Positions 5,569 to 18,270 of a stretch of DNA of 21,870 nucleotides are shown in pieces (the stretch's first letter is position 1; each line of letters begins with the position of its first letter). Origin of the DNA: a virus. The stretch spans positions 1-21,870 of IMG/VR virus record IMGVR_UViG_3300036770_001229; one strand, written 5' to 3'. The position numbers were made by a program, and so were the translations under genes. The notes under the pieces are model-generated. The model was given only the letters and a program-made list of their open reading frames with translations, had not been told where the DNA came from and made no database searches.

Positions 5569-5826
5569 TTATTCCGTCGGTTCGACGGCTGGTGTGACGA
5601 ACTCGTCTAGTTCTGCGTCGTAGCGGTCACCGATACCAGCGTACTTGGCACGGAAACTTCCCGAATAACTTGTTTGTTTCCATTCGCCTGCGAGTTTGAG
5701 TGTGTTGGCGATAAACGCTTGACCTGCGGCTTCTGACGCAGGGAAGTCGCCGCCGCCACAGTCGTCGTTGGCGATGACAATTACCTGTTGAACGGTGTTG
5801 CCTTCTATGCGTGCGAAGTGAGCCAT
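5569..5826 (-). CDS. Small fibre-associated protein, MAHFA type, copy 2
   Basis: 85 residues. It begins MAHFARIEGNTVQQVIVIAN, has GEWKQTSYSGSFRAKYAGIG near the middle, then DRYDAELDEFVTP. This pattern (MAHFA, W-QTSYN-like, R..YAGIGD.YD...D.F) is a widespread small protein encoded next to phage tail-fibre genes. It is a clear paralogue of the 78-residue gene at 6662-6898. The function is unknown; a fibre-tip, chaperone or capping role is inferred from its constant position after a glycine-rich fibre-type gene. Cys23 and GGGD in the middle are an insertion relative to the other copy. Confidence 0.78.
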   Translation of the reverse strand: MAHFARIEGNTVQQVIVIANDDCGGGDFPASEAAGQAFIANTLKLAGEWKQTSYSGSFRAKYAGIGDRYDAELDEFVTPAVEPTE

Positions 5827-5828
5827 TG

Positions 5829-6665
5829 TCAGACCTTGAACCTTACATAGACGATGCCTGAGCCGCCGTTCGGTGTGCCGCCCATACCGAACGCACCGCC
5901 ACCACCGCCACCGCCTGAGTTTGCCGTGCCAGCAACAGCATTAGAAACGCTCTTGCGTGCGCCATTACCGCCGCCACCTGTGCCGCCTGCCGCCGCCGTA
6001 TTACCGCCACCACCACCACCACCGCCTTTGTAGGTCGTGCCAGCAGTTTCACCTAGAAACGCCGAAATGTCTTGCCCTGCGCCACCTGCGCCACCCGTAG
6101 TACTGCTGGCATTGCCGCCTGTTGCGCCAGCACCGCCGCCACCACCGCCGCCGTTGTCAATACCTGTAACACCTTGACCGCCAGCGTTGCCGATGTTTGT
6201 AGTACCAGCAGATGATACGGCAGTCGTTGAACCGCCGCCACTACCGCCTTGACCACCAGCACCGTCATAGCCGCCGTAACCGCCACCGACACCGCACATT
6301 TCTTGCACAACAGATGTGTTGCCATTATTGCGATACAGCGCACCACCAGCACCAACGATTACTTGTGCGTTGGCCGTCAAATAAAGAGTGCCTTCGCAAA
6401 CACCGCCACCACCGCCGCCGCCTTGACCTTTATCAAAAGAACCGCCGTTATCTGAACCTGACCCACCGCCGCCAACGACCAGCACATCAAACAGTCCAGC
6501 CTTCGTCACCGTCAAAGTAGAACTAGATGTGAAGGTGAGAAGCGTGTAGTTCACACCACCCACCGTAATAGACGACGACGAGCCACCCGTCGCCACACCG
6601 TACTCCATGATGTTCACCGTGTCAGTCGTCTGCGACGACACATAACCCAAATACGAACGACTCAT
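5829..6665 (-). CDS. Glycine-rich adhesin / tail-fibre-type protein, copy 2
   Basis: 278 residues. The short N-terminus has LGYVSSQ (6-12). About 60 residues of beta-type sequence follow, with VNYTLLTFTSSSTLTVTKAG (about 38-57), then FDVLVVGGGGSGSDNGGSFD. From about residue 65 to 270 the chain is glycine runs broken by short polar or Ala/Thr segments, ending SGIVYVRFKV. Similar glycine-rich domains occur in phage adhesins, where polyglycine-II helices pack into a rigid tip whose loops bind the host surface. Receptor binding is therefore the likely role. It is a paralogue of the gene at 6900-7718 and overlaps the preceding small gene by four bases. The runs make it prone to slippage and recombination. 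Confidence 0.75.
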   Translation of the reverse strand: MSRSYLGYVSSQTTDTVNIMEYGVATGGSSSSITVGGVNYTLLTFTSSSTLTVTKAGLFDVLVVGGGGSGSDNGGSFDKGQGGGGGGGVCEGTLYLTANAQVIVGAGGALYRNNGNTSVVQEMCGVGGGYGGYDGAGGQGGSGGGSTTAVSSAGTTNIGNAGGQGVTGIDNGGGGGGGAGATGGNASSTTGGAGGAGQDISAFLGETAGTTYKGGGGGGGGNTAAAGGTGGGGNGARKSVSNAVAGTANSGGGGGGGAFGMGGTPNGGSGIVYVRFKV

Positions 6666-6898
6666 CCCGCTACCTCAACAGTCGGTGAAACGAACACATC
6701 ATTCTCGACATCGTAGGTGTCGCCAATACCAGCGAACTTCCCACGAAAGTTGCTGTTGTACGACGTTTGCACCCACTCACCAGCAATACCACAAGCAGCG
6801 ATAAACGCTTTGCCTGCGGCCTCGGTTGGTGCGTCGGCGTTGCCGACGACGATGACTTCACGCACGATACCGTTCTCGACCTTTGCGAAGTGTGCCAT
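6662..6898 (-). CDS. Small fibre-associated protein, MAHFA type, copy 1
   Basis: 78 residues, starting MAHFAKVENGIVREVIVVGN, with GEWVQTSYNSNFRGKFAGIG and DTYDVENDVFVSPTVEVAG. It aligns along its whole length with the 85-residue gene at 5569-5826. It lies one base after the first glycine-rich gene, and its stop overlaps the second glycine-rich gene by four bases, giving the order Gly-rich, MAHFA, Gly-rich, MAHFA. Small proteins of this type usually accompany phage fibre or adhesin genes. The biochemical function is unknown. No membrane segment is visible. Confidence 0.8.
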   Translation of the reverse strand: MAHFAKVENGIVREVIVVGNADAPTEAAGKAFIAACGIAGEWVQTSYNSNFRGKFAGIGDTYDVENDVFVSPTVEVAG

Positions 6899-12060: not shown

Positions 12061-12184
12061 GGCGGGCCTCCGACATTCCGATGGCGATTGCCTGCTTGCG
12101 CGACTTGACCTTCTTGCCTGAAGAAGACTTCAGGGTGCCGCGCTTGTACTCTCCCATAACTTTCTTCATTTTGTCTTTCTTCAT
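12044..12184 (-). CDS. DUF6496-like small basic protein (46 aa)
   Basis: ATG at 12184 overlapping the glycosyltransferase stop by four bases; TAA at 12044-12046. It begins MKKDKMKKVMGEYKRGTLKS, continues GKKVKSRKQAIAIGMSEA and ends RRAKKK. The pattern VM.E.K.GTLKS..G..VK.RKQAIAI..SEA is the well-known tiny phage and bacterial family I associate with DUF6496. Its function is not established. It is the first of the five tiny basic genes and is probably co-translated with the glycosyltransferase. Confidence 0.82.
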   Translation of the reverse strand: MKKDKMKKVMGEYKRGTLKSSSGKKVKSRKQAIAIGMSEARRAKKK

Positions 12185-13284
12185 GTGACCTCCATAGTGT
12201 ACGAATCAACGTATCCTGCTGCACGCACCACGTCAAGCACCCCTTCCGACACACGCATCGGAACACCCTTCGTGAACCTGTAGGTTTTGTCTGCGATGTC
12301 GCATTGAAGGTTGCGGTCAAGGGTGACCCGATACCAGACGGTCGCATGTTTGAACACGGGGTCGGCAATCAACGACCCTACGGGAAGGGTGTCTGTGAGT
12401 TTTCGGGCTGCCGAAGCCCACGACCAGTCAGCCAGTTTCGGTACCGTAGCCTTAGCCCAACCAAGGTGTTTGTCGTGGTTTGTGTACATTTCGCGCATCG
12501 CCTCGGCTAGTTCCCGCGGGTCGGATTCATCCCACATCCCGCCGTAATGCGATTCGGCTGGCTTGTGGGAGATGACGATGGGGGCGAGATGCGCAAAGTC
12601 GCCTTGCCCTGATGCCGCGTTCATAATCGTCGGCACCCCGCACGCCATCGCCTGCAACGGCATCAAGCCGAAACCTTCGCCCCTGGTTGCCGCTATCCAG
12701 CAGTCTGCGCTACGGAAAAAGTCGAGGGTTTGGTCGTCGGTGAACCAGCCGCGGTGCAAAAACACGTTATCTGGCAGGTCCAGTTCGGGTACCCCGAACG
12801 CTTCAGGGTTCGGTTTCAGGTGCAACTCGGCGTCGAGGTCAGCCATGATGAACGCCTTCAACACGATGTCCAAACCTTTGCGCAGCCACTGTGACCCGCC
12901 AGCATGAAACCTGAATCTGTGGTTCGCGGCCCTTTTCTTCGGTTTCCACCGTTCCACATCCACCCCCAACGGAACAAGTTTCACGTCTCGATGATGCTTC
13001 GAGAACAGTTCAAGGTTGTGGGTGCAGGGAACGATTACCTGGTCGTATGCGGGTAGCCAGTCAATGAAACGCTCGGGCAGGGTGTCTGACTCCCACATCG
13101 TAAAACACGTCTTGTGTTGACCTGCGTAAAAGTGTTTGATTTGGAACGGCTGCATCATAAACACCATCACGTCGGCGTGGTCGTGCAGGGTTACGTCGGT
13201 GGGTGCGTTGTCAACGAACCCTTTGAGCATTGACCCGTACCCGTATTTGGGGTCGGGGAAACCACGCCAAGACTGGTAGTTCAA
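12181..13284 (-). CDS. GT-B glycosyltransferase (GT4-like) with C-terminal extension
   Basis: 367 residues. The N-terminal lobe includes FTMWESDTLP (61-70) and VPLGVD (104-109). The sugar-nucleotide lobe has the basic loop GGSQWLRKGLDIVLKAF (129-145) and RGEGFGLMPLQAMACGVPTI (201-220), the GT4 nucleotide-sugar site. The usual E-x7-E is E203-x7-Q211 here, a conservative change at the second acid. Residues about 309-367 (from VFKHATVWYRVTL) are an extra small domain not part of GT4. Such enzymes move a sugar from a nucleotide donor. Sitting in the virion block, it may modify capsid or fibre proteins, or alternatively the host surface or DNA. The acceptor cannot be told. Four-base overlaps on both sides show it is embedded in the operon. 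Confidence 0.85.
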   Translation of the reverse strand: MNYQSWRGFPDPKYGYGSMLKGFVDNAPTDVTLHDHADVMVFMMQPFQIKHFYAGQHKTCFTMWESDTLPERFIDWLPAYDQVIVPCTHNLELFSKHHRDVKLVPLGVDVERWKPKKRAANHRFRFHAGGSQWLRKGLDIVLKAFIMADLDAELHLKPNPEAFGVPELDLPDNVFLHRGWFTDDQTLDFFRSADCWIAATRGEGFGLMPLQAMACGVPTIMNAASGQGDFAHLAPIVISHKPAESHYGGMWDESDPRELAEAMREMYTNHDKHLGWAKATVPKLADWSWASAARKLTDTLPVGSLIADPVFKHATVWYRVTLDRNLQCDIADKTYRFTKGVPMRVSEGVLDVVRAAGYVDSYTMEVT

Positions 13285-13514
13285 TCCGCGGTCTTCTCCA
13301 GTTTCGCTGACCCGTCAATCTTCATTGGCTGCCCACCCGTGCGACGTATCCGCTTGTAGGCATCCAAGTCTTTGTCCAACTGTTTCTCTTTGGCGTTCAA
13401 CTGCTGCACGTTTTTGCGGGTCGGCATCGCAGAACCAGACATCCGCACATGGCTGATACGGCAAGCAAAACAGCCAGGTGTATCTAAATCAGGATGCGTC
13501 TCTGCGTGTTTCAT
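13281..13514 (-). CDS. Small conserved phage protein with GCFAC motif (77 aa)
   Basis: 77 residues starting MKHAETHPDLDTPGCFACRI. The HPD...PGCFAC motif, with two cysteines three apart and nearby histidines, recurs at the start of small proteins of phages infecting Actinobacteria and could bind a metal. The rest is a charged helix (NVQQLNAKEKQLDKDLDAYK) and a basic stretch. It couples to the glycosyltransferase by a four-base overlap and follows the 94-residue gene by six bases. No function is known to me. Confidence 0.75.
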   Translation of the reverse strand: MKHAETHPDLDTPGCFACRISHVRMSGSAMPTRKNVQQLNAKEKQLDKDLDAYKRIRRTGGQPMKIDGSAKLEKTAD

Positions 13515-13520
13515 TTTCCC

Positions 13521-13805
13521 CTACGAGATGTATGCGCCGTAACCTGCCGCAGTAAGACTAGCAACCTCATCAGCCGTCACCTGATTGTCGGTGCCACCCC
13601 AATACACCTTGGAGATGGTGGTGATGTCGTTTGGTTCGTTCTCCGTGTAGGTGCCGTTCGTCAACAGGAAGACGTTCCTGCCGCGAGGTTCGGCATCGAA
13701 ATGTTTGAACAGCGAATACGCCAACCGAACCTCCTGAGAATCGAACTCCTTCGGTGGGATACCCAACACCATGAAGTCGTCGGTTGGCGGTCTAAAGGTG
13801 CTCAT
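13521..13805 (-). CDS. Stand-alone paralogue of the repeat protein's C-terminal domain (94 aa)
   Basis: 94 residues. From about residue 27 it matches the last 65 residues of the preceding gene: RLAYSLF versus RLFRYAQ, NVFLLTNGTYT versus NVYKLTDGTYT, SKVYWGG versus AKIYYGG, VTADEVASLTAAGYGAYIS versus VTQEEKDDLIAAGYGSYVS. Both begin the shared part near FRPP and end at the stop. It starts by a four-base overlap with that gene. The shared domain looks like a small alpha/beta virion module ending in a helix and a Gly/Tyr tail. Likely roles are capsid or neck decoration. The duplication is plain in the sequence; the function is not. Confidence 0.78.
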   Translation of the reverse strand: MSTFRPPTDDFMVLGIPPKEFDSQEVRLAYSLFKHFDAEPRGRNVFLLTNGTYTENEPNDITTISKVYWGGTDNQVTADEVASLTAAGYGAYIS

Positions 13806-14884
13806 GAGACGTAACTACCGTAGCCTGCCGCAATCAAGTCATCCTTTTCTTCCTGTGTCACAAAGTTCTGGGAGCCGCCGTAGTAAATCTTGGCAATGAG
13901 CGTGTAGTCCCGCTGCTCTACCGTAGTGTAGGTTCCGTCGGTCAACTTGTAGACGTTGCTGCCAGCGTAGGTGGGTTGCGCGTAGCGGAACAGGCGACCC
14001 GCAATCGACATGTCGTCACGGTCGGCGGCGGCAATCTCGGTGGTTGCTGGTGGGCGGAACAGCAGCAGTTTGATGATGCTGTTGCTGCTCGTGCCCGTGC
14101 CAGATGCGGAGGCGCTGCGTTGGGCGACGCGAGCCGAAACAATCTCCCTGCCACCCGTACCCGATGCGGTAGCGGTACGGAAACGGGTAATGACTTTGAC
14201 GACAACCGACGACCCTGCGCCCGTGCCCGTGGCGGTGCGCGGTGCGATGTGCAGTTGGCTGACGCTCGACGCACCTGCCCCCGATGCTGTGGCGGTGCGT
14301 GCACGGGTGACTTCGCCGTCGGCTGTCTGTGTGCCTGTGCCTGATGCTGTGGCGGTGCGGGGCACGATACGCAGCCCTGTCGCCGTCTGGGTGCCTGTGC
14401 CAGACCCTGAGCCTGTGTACGCACGAACCACGTTGCGCTGTGCGCTGGAAGCGCCCGTGCCCGAACCTGTTGCGGTACGGGGTGCGATGTGCAAACCAGT
14501 CGCACCACCCCCAGTGGTGCCTTGACCACTCGCAGTGGCGGACCGTGGAACGACACGCTCACCCTCAGCGGTCTGCGTACCCGTACCAGCGGCGAGTGCC
14601 GTGCGCTTCGCCACCAGCACAGTAGTGGTCGATGATGACCCTGACCCTGAACCTGTCGCAGTACGCAGCGATAGAACTAGACGTTGCGCAGTTGACGACC
14701 CTGTACCTGCTGCTGAAGCAGTGCGCTCAACGACGACTAGACCGCGATAGAAACCCTGCGTCGTCTTGTACGGTGACGCAAAATAGACGACCTTGCGGTA
14801 CGCGTAGTTCGGTACTTCCTCGAACTCCCGAAAGCCAGGAGTGTCGGTGAATCCGAACGTGAAGTCGGTGACGCCAGTAGCCAT
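13802..14884 (-). CDS. Virion repeat protein: N-terminal domain, 11 RTA repeats, C-terminal domain
   Basis: 360 residues in three parts. Residues 1-53 form an aromatic-rich N-domain (FREFEEVPNYAYRKVVYFAS). Residues 54-275 are eleven units of about 18-22 residues, each opening R-[TAS]-x-[TSL] and continuing A/G-S-G-T-G, then a short hydrophobic strand (units resemble RTATASGTGTQTADGEVTRA). The Gly/Ser/Thr turn plus strand spacing suggests a beta-solenoid or extended stalk. Residues 277-360 are a domain shared with the next gene. Together this looks like an extended surface fibre or decoration protein with a C-terminal knob. A GAGGT ribosome site lies upstream, and the start codon lies in a short inverted repeat. 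No polymerase-slippage tract is visible. Confidence 0.75.
   Translation of the reverse strand: MATGVTDFTFGFTDTPGFREFEEVPNYAYRKVVYFASPYKTTQGFYRGLVVVERTASAAGTGSSTAQRLVLSLRTATGSGSGSSSTTTVLVAKRTALAAGTGTQTAEGERVVPRSATASGQGTTGGGATGLHIAPRTATGSGTGASSAQRNVVRAYTGSGSGTGTQTATGLRIVPRTATASGTGTQTADGEVTRARTATASGAGASSVSQLHIAPRTATGTGAGSSVVVKVITRFRTATASGTGGREIVSARVAQRSASASGTGTSSNSIIKLLLFRPPATTEIAAADRDDMSIAGRLFRYAQPTYAGSNVYKLTDGTYTTVEQRDYTLIAKIYYGGSQNFVTQEEKDDLIAAGYGSYVS
14060..14725 (-). repeat. Eleven in-frame repeats of about 60 bases (RTA repeats)
   Basis: The stretch encodes eleven tandem protein units of about 20 residues. On the plus strand, phrases such as GCGGTGCG and GTGCCTGTGCC recur with the same period. 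Units differ enough at the DNA level that most have diverged; units 6 and 7 share GTGTQTA and RIVPRTA-type phrasing and are the closest. Unit number is likely to vary between related phages. Confidence 0.8.
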
Positions 14885-14898: not shown

Positions 14899-15261
14899 TC
14901 AATCGAGGGTCAGCGTCAGCGAAGTGATTTGGAAAGTGTCGCCAGCGGTGACCGAAGCAGACGAAGACAACGCACCAGTCCACAGACAGTTGCCCGCAGT
15001 CGAGTTGTCCCACAGCGAGAAATGCGAATAGGTTTCCGTGGTAGAAACGTTCGTCCATTCAACTGTCGCAGATGACGCCATCGAACCGCTGGATGCGGCA
15101 GAGAACGTGACTTCTTCACGGGTTGTCTCTGTGGCTGCGTTGCTCGTGCCAGCCTCACCAGGGTCACCAGTGTGCAACTTCACGTAGACGTTGCTCACCG
15201 AAAACGATTGAGCGCGAAGGGTATCGAGCAGTTTGTTTTCTGCGTAGTTAGAAATCGACAT
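14899..15261 (-). CDS. Small virion / tail-type protein (120 aa)
   Basis: 120 residues. It begins MSISNYAENKLLDTLRAQSF, has VYVKLHTGDPGEAGTSNAAT (about 26-45), then an EEVTFSAASS strand and YSHFSLWDNSTAGNCLWTGA, ending FQITSLTLTLD. The pattern N..LD...N...Y..LHTGDPGE.GT.N......R..V.F......W......T.S.FSLWD..... is a very common small phage structural protein, often called a minor tail or fibre protein. It is the first gene after the capsid terminator, with a GAGGT ribosome site at about 15265-15270. In these phages it may decorate the capsid or form part of the neck. Confidence 0.8.
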   Translation of the reverse strand: MSISNYAENKLLDTLRAQSFSVSNVYVKLHTGDPGEAGTSNAATETTREEVTFSAASSGSMASSATVEWTNVSTTETYSHFSLWDNSTAGNCLWTGALSSSASVTAGDTFQITSLTLTLD

Positions 15262-15362: not shown

Positions 15363-16325
15363 TCAGTTTGCGCCGAGCGACGAAGCCGACTCGATGCGAC
15401 GCAGCGAAGCCTCACGGAATCGTGCGTAGCCGCCGAGCCAGTACCAGCCGACAGGCTGGAAACGCTGGAGCACGTCAACCACTGGACCGCGGACAACGCG
15501 TGGGAACGCGCCGTTGCCATCCACGATTGAGTGTGCCTTGGCGAGGGCCTGACGACCCGCGATGTGCGTGCAGTACGCATCCACGGTGCCAGTCGAGCCT
15601 GAGCCGTTCGAGGCGTTCTCGAAAATCTTCGCACGCGGCGTCTCAATGAAACGCACGCCTTCGAAGGCTCCGACTTCGCCGTTGTAGATGTTCGCTGGGT
15701 CGCTGTACACGTGCGGGTCACGCCACGAAGCCACACCAGTCTCCTTGCGGAGGTCGTATGACACGTCGGGGTGAATGTAACCCATGTACATGCCGTTGAA
15801 CGAAACGGCGTTGGCCTTGCGGAGAGCGGCGACAACCTTGCGGACGTCGTTCGCTTCGATGATGTCGGTCGCCTCGATTTCGGTGCGGGCCGTCGGGGTG
15901 GTGCTTCCGCCGCCACCGTAGACGACGTTCGTGCCAGCGGCGAGGACGTCACGGATAACGCCGTCGATGCTGATACCAGCGTTGTAGCCGACCAGGTTGG
16001 CGGCTGCCGCATCCACGTCAAGGAACGAAGTTCCACGCAACTTGGCGGTGGTGTTGACAGCGTTGCCGTACTCGTTCAGCGTCACTTCAACCTGGCTGTC
16101 GCCCATCACCACTGGGGTGACGTCGGTGTCCTCGGTGAGGGTGCTGGTCTTTTCGCTCAGGTCGTTGAAGATGGTGAACTTCACCGATGAGCCTGGCATT
16201 GCTTGTGCGACGGGCATCACGTCTGCAACCGCGTCGAACAGAAGTTCGCTGCGGAGTGCGAAGTACGCAATCCTGTCAAATGCAACCTGGTCTGTGAGCA
16301 GGTCGCTCTGTTGTGTCTTGGTCAT
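15363..16325 (-). CDS. Major capsid protein, N4-gp56-like family
   Basis: 320 residues. The fold and layout match the N4-gp56-type major capsid family: an N-terminal helix (VAFDRIAYFALRSELLFDAV), then MPGSSVKFTIFNDLSEKTST, a TEDTDVTPV loop, VEVTLNEYGNAVNTTAKLRG (about 79-98), YMGYIHPDVSYDLRKETG in the middle, and GVRFIETPRAKIFEN before the C-terminal domain. HK97-fold capsid proteins build the shell. It follows a scaffold-type gene by 43 bases and is closed by a strong terminator, the usual pattern for the most abundant virion protein. The ribosome site before the ATG is weak (AGGT). N4-type capsids occur in both short- and long-tailed phages. Confidence 0.9.
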   Translation of the reverse strand: MTKTQQSDLLTDQVAFDRIAYFALRSELLFDAVADVMPVAQAMPGSSVKFTIFNDLSEKTSTLTEDTDVTPVVMGDSQVEVTLNEYGNAVNTTAKLRGTSFLDVDAAAANLVGYNAGISIDGVIRDVLAAGTNVVYGGGGSTTPTARTEIEATDIIEANDVRKVVAALRKANAVSFNGMYMGYIHPDVSYDLRKETGVASWRDPHVYSDPANIYNGEVGAFEGVRFIETPRAKIFENASNGSGSTGTVDAYCTHIAGRQALAKAHSIVDGNGAFPRVVRGPVVDVLQRFQPVGWYWLGGYARFREASLRRIESASSLGAN

Positions 16326-16923: not shown

Positions 16924-18270
16924 CTACTGGGCGGTTCCGACACCAGTTTCAACTGTGCCAGAGGTTGCGCCAGAGGTGCGGGCGAATCCGCCGCCACCTT
17001 GGAACTCTGCGAGACGTTGACGCTGGCGACGCAACAACGCCTGCTCTGCCTGAACATCGAATCCGAGGGCGGCGCCAACCTTCTGTTCTTCCGTCAGCCC
17101 TTCTTCCCCGCCCATCTCTTGATACAAGCCAGCCAACTGTCCTGCACGTTGGAACGCCGCTTGGGTTCCTTCTGCGGTGTAGCCGCGGCGGACCAGTTCT
17201 TCTGCGGTTCCCGCACCGAACTGGAAGCCTGCCTGTTCCCTGCCGCGGGCACCGATACGGGCAGCCTCAACCTGGCGTTGCAGGCTCGTCAATGCGCGGT
17301 CTGGGTCAATGAAATAGGCGGCAAGAGCGTTCTCGTCGTTGCCCACCTCGGGGTAGAACTGGCGGAGGGTGTTCAAGACTTGCGGGTCGGCATTGCGGAC
17401 CTTGGCGTACCCTTGGTTGATGCGGGCTTGAAACTCCGAGGGGGAGACGTCGCCTTCGATGAGGCGGGCAAAGTCGTCTGGGGAGTCGTAGAACTCGGCT
17501 GGTAGACGGTTGGCTACGAGCACTGAACGGTATTGCTGTTCCAATCCGATGTAGGTGGCGGGGTCAAGTTCGGGTAGCCCTTTGGATGCGCGGGCTGCGT
17601 TCGCTTTGAAACGGGTACGGAACTGTTCGGTGTCTCGCAACTGGAACAGGATGGCGTCGGAGTCCTCGATGCCTTGGGCAAGCAGGGCGCGGATTTGTGA
17701 TTCTAGGCCCCGTAGTCCTGCGCGACCGAGGAAGGAGTTGATTACCCCGAAAGCGTTTTCTCGGCGTGAGGCTGCTGCCGCGGCTTCGGCGGCTTGTTGT
17801 GCGGCGAACTGTGCTGCGCGTTGTTCGCGGTCAAGGCGGGCGATTCGTTCGGTTTCAGTTTCCCCACCAGTTTCCCCACCAGTTTCCCCACCCGTGCCAC
17901 CACCAGTGCCGCCACCAGTGCCGCCACCAGTGCCGCCACCAGTGCCGCCACCAGTTTCCCCACCCGTGCCACCACCCGTGCCGCCACCAGTGCCGCCACC
18001 AGTGCCGCCACCAGTTTCCCCACCCGTGCCACCACCCGTGCCGCCACCAGTTTCCCCACCCGTGCCGCCACCACCAGCACCGCCACCACCAGTTTCCCCA
18101 CCAGTACCGCCACCACCAGTGCCACCGCCAGTACCGCCATCCTCTTGCGGAGTGTATGGTGCCGTCAACCCAGGCTGATTCGGCGAAAGAGCACCACGAG
18201 CCACCAACTCCTGACGCAAATCAGGAGGAATCGTTGCAACATCTTCTTCTGGAAGAAATGCCATGCTCAT
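16924..18270 (-). CDS. Putative internal virion protein with GGGT repeat tract
   Basis: 448 residues. The first 44 residues are a short Pro-rich segment (FLPEEDVATIPPDLRQELVA). Residues 45-137 are almost wholly Gly/Thr with spaced Glu (GGGT and GGET units). Residues about 138-170 are a charged, Ala-rich helix. The C-terminal 280 residues are helical: YRSVLVANRLPAEFYDSPDD, SPSEFQARINQGYAKVRNAD and a late QGGGGFARTSGA. I know this helical pattern from large proteins beside the capsid genes of phages of Actinobacteria, where ejection or internal roles are assumed. It is followed by the candidate promoter of the capsid unit. The glycine tract is a flexible linker and differs sharply from the rest of the protein. 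Confidence 0.65.
   Translation of the reverse strand: MSMAFLPEEDVATIPPDLRQELVARGALSPNQPGLTAPYTPQEDGGTGGGTGGGGTGGETGGGGAGGGGTGGETGGGTGGGTGGETGGGTGGGTGGGTGGGTGGETGGGTGGGTGGGTGGGTGGGTGGETGGETGGETETERIARLDREQRAAQFAAQQAAEAAAAASRRENAFGVINSFLGRAGLRGLESQIRALLAQGIEDSDAILFQLRDTEQFRTRFKANAARASKGLPELDPATYIGLEQQYRSVLVANRLPAEFYDSPDDFARLIEGDVSPSEFQARINQGYAKVRNADPQVLNTLRQFYPEVGNDENALAAYFIDPDRALTSLQRQVEAARIGARGREQAGFQFGAGTAEELVRRGYTAEGTQAAFQRAGQLAGLYQEMGGEEGLTEEQKVGAALGFDVQAEQALLRRQRQRLAEFQGGGGFARTSGATSGTVETGVGTAQ
17860..18138 (-). repeat. 12-base minisatellite coding GGGT/GGET units
   Basis: A tandem array of mostly 12-base units (plus strand CCACCAGTGCCG and variants with CCCGTGCCA or CCAGTTTCC) spans about 280 bases. 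TTTCC variants, coding GGET, recur in a longer pattern: blocks of several GGGT units closed by a GGET unit. Near-identical blocks show recent expansion by unequal pairing or slippage. All variants keep the frame. Confidence 0.88.

What the first reader, a model, noticed from the sequence alone, without database searches (positions are those of the whole stretch)
13521..14884. Repeat protein and a stand-alone copy of its C-terminal domain in tandem
The 84-residue C-terminal domain of the 11-repeat protein recurs as its own 94-residue gene immediately downstream, with shared NV..LT.GTYT, K.Y.GG and AAGYG.Y.S. A long repeat-bearing form and a short form of the same domain made from one transcript could form mixed oligomers, with some subunits carrying the stalk and others not.
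Basis: partly seen in the sequence, partly recalled or inferred. Interest (0 to 1): 0.6.

Follow-up and report, generated by a model that had tools for sequence, protein, structure and literature searches.

The report
Phage fibre protein with stand-alone twin
Next to its capsid gene, a virus of probably freshwater actinobacteria makes a long repeat protein and, from an overlapping gene, a small separate copy of that protein's end domain; relatives show that the small domain is the ancient core part and the long stalk is a swappable add-on, so the pair looks like a fibre with its own base, though nobody has yet seen either protein in a virus particle.

Summary
On the minus strand a 360-aa protein with 11 repeats of about 20 residues ends in an 85-residue domain, and a 94-aa protein that is the same domain overlaps it by ATGA (41% identity, E 6e-19). 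In 170 complete related loci one slot, between the capsid gene and a conserved small gene, holds four arrangements: (A) gp80 + long + short, as here; (B) gp80 + long; (C) short only, also in an isolated Planktophila phage; (D) domain + collagen-like fibre + short. gp80, related to solved fibre/whisker proteins, and the long protein are always together (140/140) or both absent (30/30). The domain tree places A-short with the single-copy B and C domains; the domain on the A long protein is a separate, faster-changing paralogue. A-short always carries a 6-10-residue loop insert, seen only where a second copy exists. Both models show one fold without a PDB match. I read this as a fibre cassette: the short protein is the virion-docking core, the long one a stalk whose C-terminal twin domain pairs with it. 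A defined two-part assembly is plausible; interchangeable mixing is unlikely. Virion location is untested. New variant of a known kind, moderate interest.

The parts
13802..14884 (-). Long protein (LONG), 360 aa: N-terminal segment, 11-repeat stalk, C-terminal domain; phrog_23524 (unknown function)
   Evidence: phrog_23524 E 1.3e-69
14726..14884 (-). N-terminal segment of LONG (residues 1-53), the least conserved part across tandem loci
   Evidence: first 45 residues: median identity 0.50
14060..14725 (-). Stalk: 11 repeats of 18-22 residues (mode 20), consensus near RTATASGTGTQTAxGLxIAP, Gly/Ser/Thr-rich with beta-type alternation
   Evidence: repeat starts; identity peaks at even offsets, 20 and 40; AF2 strands but pLDDT near 32
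13805..14059 (-). C-terminal domain of LONG (residues 276-360), diverged paralogue of the short protein
13802..13805 (-). ATGA overlap of LONG stop and short start: probable translational coupling
13521..13805 (-). Short protein, 94 aa: stand-alone copy of the domain (core lineage; related to phrog_8987)
13740..13757 (-). Loop insert of the short protein (about residues 17-22, PPKEFD), present only in shorts that have a second domain copy beside them
14899..15261 (-). gp80 homologue (PF23140, GP4 fibre I; phrog_240), obligate companion of LONG in relatives
15363..16325 (-). Major capsid protein (PF13252), upstream border of the slot
13281..13514 (-). Small conserved Cys-containing protein (phrog_24600), downstream border of the slot

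Best explanation
gp80, LONG and short form a fibre (whisker) cassette placed after the capsid gene. The short domain is the old core protein and probably docks on the virion. LONG is a probably trimeric beta-repeat stalk whose C-terminal domain is a duplicated, specialised copy of the core; it most likely pairs with the short protein, which carries an extra loop, so that the stalk is held at its C-terminal end and its exchangeable N-terminal end points outward. In relatives with a single copy the domain is either fused to the stalk or stands alone without any stalk. Shown: homology, same predicted fold, overlap, conserved synteny, gp80-LONG co-occurrence, separate paralogue clades, loop insert tied to a second copy, replacement by a collagen-like fibre. 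Inferred: virion location, polarity, oligomeric state, direct contact between LONG and short.
For: Slot and cassettes: 170 complete loci fall into four arrangements, gp80 and LONG always together (140) or both absent (30). A collagen-like protein with PHROG tail-fibre matches replaces gp80+LONG in L065/L027. gp80 is related to GP4 fibre I (8jou) and to Sf14 neck whisker gp31 (9c39) and lies among or after minor tail genes in mycobacteriophages. Core identity of short: the tree puts A-short, C-short and B-LONG domains together (98*), A-LONG domains outside; Planktophila phage F5 and Streptomyces Manuelviruses have a stand-alone relative near the same place. Division of labour: B-LONG keeps both the core residues (PPTD) and the stalk-linked ones (K81, V93, T94); in A these are split between short and LONG. 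Loop insert in 116 of 116 shorts with a second copy, 0 of 30 single-copy shorts. Polarity: LONG N-end and stalk vary most (median identity 0.50, 0.52), LONG-C 0.61, short 0.70; some LONGs carry an additional N-terminal domain of about 240 aa. Coupling: ATGA/GTGA in 97 of 114.
Against: No proteomic or structural evidence that either protein is in the particle. The domain has no solved relative. The short is less conserved than MCP, gp80 or p24600 (0.70 against 0.89, 0.81, 0.77), which is modest for a docking part. Pairwise distances of short and LONG-C correlate no better with each other (0.75) than either does with MCP (0.78, 0.81), so there is no specific co-evolution signal. Only 4 phylogenetically independent contrasts support the loop-insert link, sign test p 0.125. 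gp80 could be the attachment part of LONG instead.
Confidence: 0.42

Rival explanations
1. The C-terminal domain is the receptor-binding tip of LONG, as in most tail fibres with an N-terminal anchor, and short is a second, separately attached adhesin of the same fold.
For: Known tail fibres usually bind receptor with the C-terminal end (established knowledge). LONG-C changes faster than short (433 of 500 pairs). gp80 just upstream could provide the anchor.
Against: The domain is the most conserved part of LONG, the N-end and stalk vary more, and extra modules are added at the N-end. Phages without any stalk keep the stand-alone domain.
Confidence: 0.25
2. The domain is an oligomerisation or folding module (foldon- or chaperone-like). 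Short is an assembly helper for LONG, analogous to a tail-fibre assembly chaperone encoded just downstream of its fibre.
For: Position directly downstream with overlapping start; small size; class A short always accompanies a second copy.
Against: 28 loci and phage F5 have the stand-alone domain with no LONG or gp80 in the slot, and 31 loci have LONG without short. No fold similarity to known assembly proteins.
Confidence: 0.15
3. One reading: short and LONG are interchangeable subunits that form mixed oligomers, some with and some without stalk.
For: Same fold, 41% identity, coupled translation.
Against: Separate conserved clades and group-specific residues, no homogenisation; single-form phages are viable lineages.
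Confidence: 0.1
4. Neither is a virion protein; the pair is an accessory factor whose place beside capsid genes is incidental.
For: No virion detection for any member; PHROG families have unknown function.
Against: Always inside the structural operon, tied to gp80, whose relatives are solved virion parts, and replaced by a collagen-like fibre in D.
Confidence: 0.08

Closest known systems
phrog_23524 (342 aa, unknown function)
   Same: LONG matches over repeats and C-domain (E 1.3e-69); short matches its C-terminal end (4.4e-18)
   Different: The family record says nothing of a stand-alone twin, of the cassette or of function
phrog_8987 (86 aa; Streptomyces phage Manuel gp36, Kumquat gp38, unknown function)
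   Same: Stand-alone domain close behind the capsid gene; short (9.9e-06), LONG (2.3e-05) and class C short (1.4e-07) match its C-terminal half
   Different: No repeat stalk or second copy seen beside it; only weak similarity in the N-terminal half
Planktophila phage LanE43AprF5 (OX376641; host 'Ca. Planktophila' LanE-43, PMC10202952)
   Same: Capsid gene, 89-aa domain, then p24600 and p7595 relatives in the same order as class C
   Different: One domain copy, no gp80, no LONG in the slot
Podophage GP4 fibre I gp80 (PF23140, 8jou) and Sf14 neck whisker gp31 (9c39)
   Same: gp80 homologue next to LONG: PF23140 E 2.8e-30; 8jou 5.4e-09; 9c39 6.2e-09
   Different: LONG and short have no sequence match in the PDB
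BFVD A0A1B0XU09 (400 aa), A0A6J5N885 (85 aa), A0A1B0XUF0 (83 aa)
   Same: Only confident fold matches of both models; long and short forms of the domain
   Different: Uncharacterised predicted proteins

Membership tests
phrog_23524 / phrog_8987 domain family | Profile match over the domain | tested here: met
   LONG 1.3e-69 and short 4.4e-18 to phrog_23524; both near 1e-5 to phrog_8987
phrog_8987 domain family | Full-length match including the N-terminal half | tested here: not met
   Matches begin at profile position 27-47 of 86; hhalign with F5, Kumquat and Manuel covers 54 columns, probability 68
GP4 gp80 fibre I family (PF23140), for the neighbour gene | Score above the Pfam gathering cut-off | tested here: met
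   105.7 bits against 27
Phage fibre with N-terminal anchor and C-terminal receptor tip | Conserved N-terminal anchor and variable C-terminal tip | tested here: not met
   N-end median identity 0.50, C-domain 0.61
Phage fibre | Presence in the virion as an elongated oligomer | not testable with these tools
   No multimer prediction or proteomics at hand; no proteomics found in the one Manuelvirus paper read
Tail-fibre assembly chaperone | Strict dependence on a partner fibre gene | tested here: not met
   Stand-alone domain without LONG in 28 loci and in phage F5
Collagen-like fibre (PF01391) | Gly-X-Y repeats | tested here: not met
   LONG has no Pfam match; only the class D replacement gene does

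The most novel reading that the evidence does not exclude
A phage fibre held by its C-terminal end through a fixed two-paralogue base: a capsid- or neck-docking core domain was duplicated, one copy became the foot of the stalk and the other acquired a loop to receive it, while gp80+stalk (or a collagen fibre) is swapped in and out around the core.
Probability: 0.3. Interest if true: 0.6.

Novelty: new variant of a known kind. Interest (0 to 1): 0.42.

Why it matters
Viruses of freshwater actinobacteria are abundant but their attachment machinery is nearly unknown. This locus gives a natural series (no stalk, stalk fused to a single core, stalk plus separate core, collagen replacement) on closely related capsids, so the function of the domain and the polarity of the stalk can be tested by comparison. 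The fold has no solved relative, and the same uncharacterised domain sits close behind the capsid gene in two cultivated groups (Planktophila phages, Streptomyces Manuelviruses), where tests are possible.

Tried and rejected
tblastn of both proteins against 50,697 phage genomes: no match; the route to isolates was MCP and the phrog_8987 relative. Both genome-contig scans found no prophage relative, so the host is not shown directly. PDB sequence and fold searches of the domain: nothing. The AF2 model of LONG leaves the stalk at pLDDT near 32, so no stalk fold is claimed; the search with this model is used only for its C-domain. The first loop-length count used a pattern that stopped early in some shorts; corrected. 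Mirror-tree correlation gave no specific signal. Gene conversion between the two copies rejected by the tree. The GP4 structure paper is not held. A first attempt to hand in this report was malformed and not accepted.

Full report
Check. The long protein has 11 repeats of mostly 20 residues. The start of the short gene overlaps the stop of the long one as ATGA; the same four-base overlap (ATGA or GTGA) occurs in 97 of 114 tandem relatives.

Setting. The window is a 21,870-base fragment of a virus record, 57% G+C, without tRNA genes. Read from high to low coordinates the order is capsid protein (PF13252), gp80 homologue (PF23140), long, short, p24600, glycosyltransferase, tail genes. The capsid protein is 45-48% identical to those of Streptomyces podophages (Manuelvirus) and 45% to that of Planktophila phage F5. 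F5 infects 'Ca. Planktophila', a freshwater actinobacterium (PMC10202952), so an actinobacterial host is likely here but not shown; no bacterial genome searched carries a relative.

Four arrangements. From three scans of viral contigs I took loci with the whole interval from capsid gene to p24600: 170 loci. 109 have gp80+LONG+short (26 capsid lineages at 95% identity), 31 gp80+LONG only (9), 28 short only (17), 2 a stand-alone domain, a collagen-like protein and short (1). No complete locus lacks the domain, but most loci were found through it, so this is partly by construction; loci found by the capsid query alone also lacked none. gp80 and LONG are always both present or both absent. The collagen-like protein matches PHROG tail fibres and PF01391, which supports reading gp80+LONG as a fibre cassette. 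On the capsid tree the arrangement changes at least 13 times by parsimony, so cassettes are exchanged between related genomes.

Which copy is the old one. The domain tree has A-short in one starred clade (96*, with the class D short), and A-short, C-short and B-LONG domains together (98*). The A-LONG domains lie outside this group. The tree is short (93 columns), many forks are open and the Streptomyces outgroup is on a long branch, so the root is uncertain; that A-short and A-LONG are separate is clear. Group-specific residues agree: A-LONG has lost PPTD, which short and single-copy domains keep, while A-LONG and B-LONG share K81, V93 and T94 (short numbering). This pattern fits division of labour after duplication. 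The stand-alone domain in F5 (89 aa, between capsid gene and p24600) and in Manuelviruses suggests that the stand-alone state is old. The match to those is weak in the N-terminal half.

Loop insert. Shorts with a second domain copy beside them have 34-38 residues between the FxPP motif and the NV motif; single-copy shorts 24-29, LONG domains 27-29. Association is complete (36 and 19 capsid lineages), but only 4 independent contrasts are available (p 0.125), and linkage within a cassette explains part of it. The class D locus, where LONG is gone but another domain copy is present, keeps the insert.

Structure. The short model is confident (pLDDT 92.3): strands 2-4 and 8-12, helix 24-33, hairpin 39-48, strands 64-68 and 74-76, final helix 78-92. 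It has no PDB neighbour, and three uncharacterised phage proteins match in BFVD. The LONG model shows the same order of elements at its C-end and finds the same three entries. The stalk is not resolved, as expected for a beta-fibre that folds only as an oligomer (inference).

How it may work. gp80 relatives are solved as GP4 fibre I and as the Sf14 whisker subunit gp31, bound there to a gp30 dimer at the neck (PMC11821841). I infer a neck or capsid whisker built from gp80, LONG and short. Conservation falls from short (0.70) through LONG-C (0.61) to stalk (0.52) and N-end (0.50), and additional domains occur at the N-end (L054, L091), so I place the C-terminal domain at the virion side. That short docks and LONG-C pairs with it is inference.

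Same fold and co-translation are supported; random mixed oligomers are not, since the copies are specialised and each form exists alone in relatives. A fixed two-part base remains possible and is testable.

Novelty. Long and short domain families are already in PHROGs as unknowns. The duplicated, specialised pair and the cassette exchange around a core domain were not met in the papers read; the literature search was limited to open papers.

Noticed in passing
window 5569-5826 and 6662-6898 (-): A second tandem duplication in the tail-fibre region: two 78-85-aa proteins (MAHFA..., phrog_7759), 55% identical, each directly downstream of a glycine-rich protein (PF21722).
   Followed up: partly
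window 17864-18132 (-): GGGT/GGET tandem repeats (period 12, 24, 36 or 60 bases) in the 448-aa protein 16924-18270 (phrog_8424) upstream of the scaffold and capsid genes.
   Followed up: no
L065 9383-10717 (same contig as L027): Collagen-like fibre of 445 aa stands in the place of gp80+LONG, with a domain protein bearing a C-terminal extension before it.
   Followed up: partly
L054 2490-3300, L091 2125-2850: Long proteins with an extra N-terminal domain of about 240 aa; no Pfam match, and no PHROG match to the extra domain itself.
   Followed up: partly
L139 2025-2444, L145 6231-6629, L181 4182-4466: Extra gene (SLQGELNRLAGT...) between the domain gene and p24600 in some loci; a similar protein lies further downstream in phage F5 (L204 7539-7811).
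   Followed up: no
window 12181-13284 (-): Glycosyltransferase gene after p24600, not detected in every relative.
   Followed up: no
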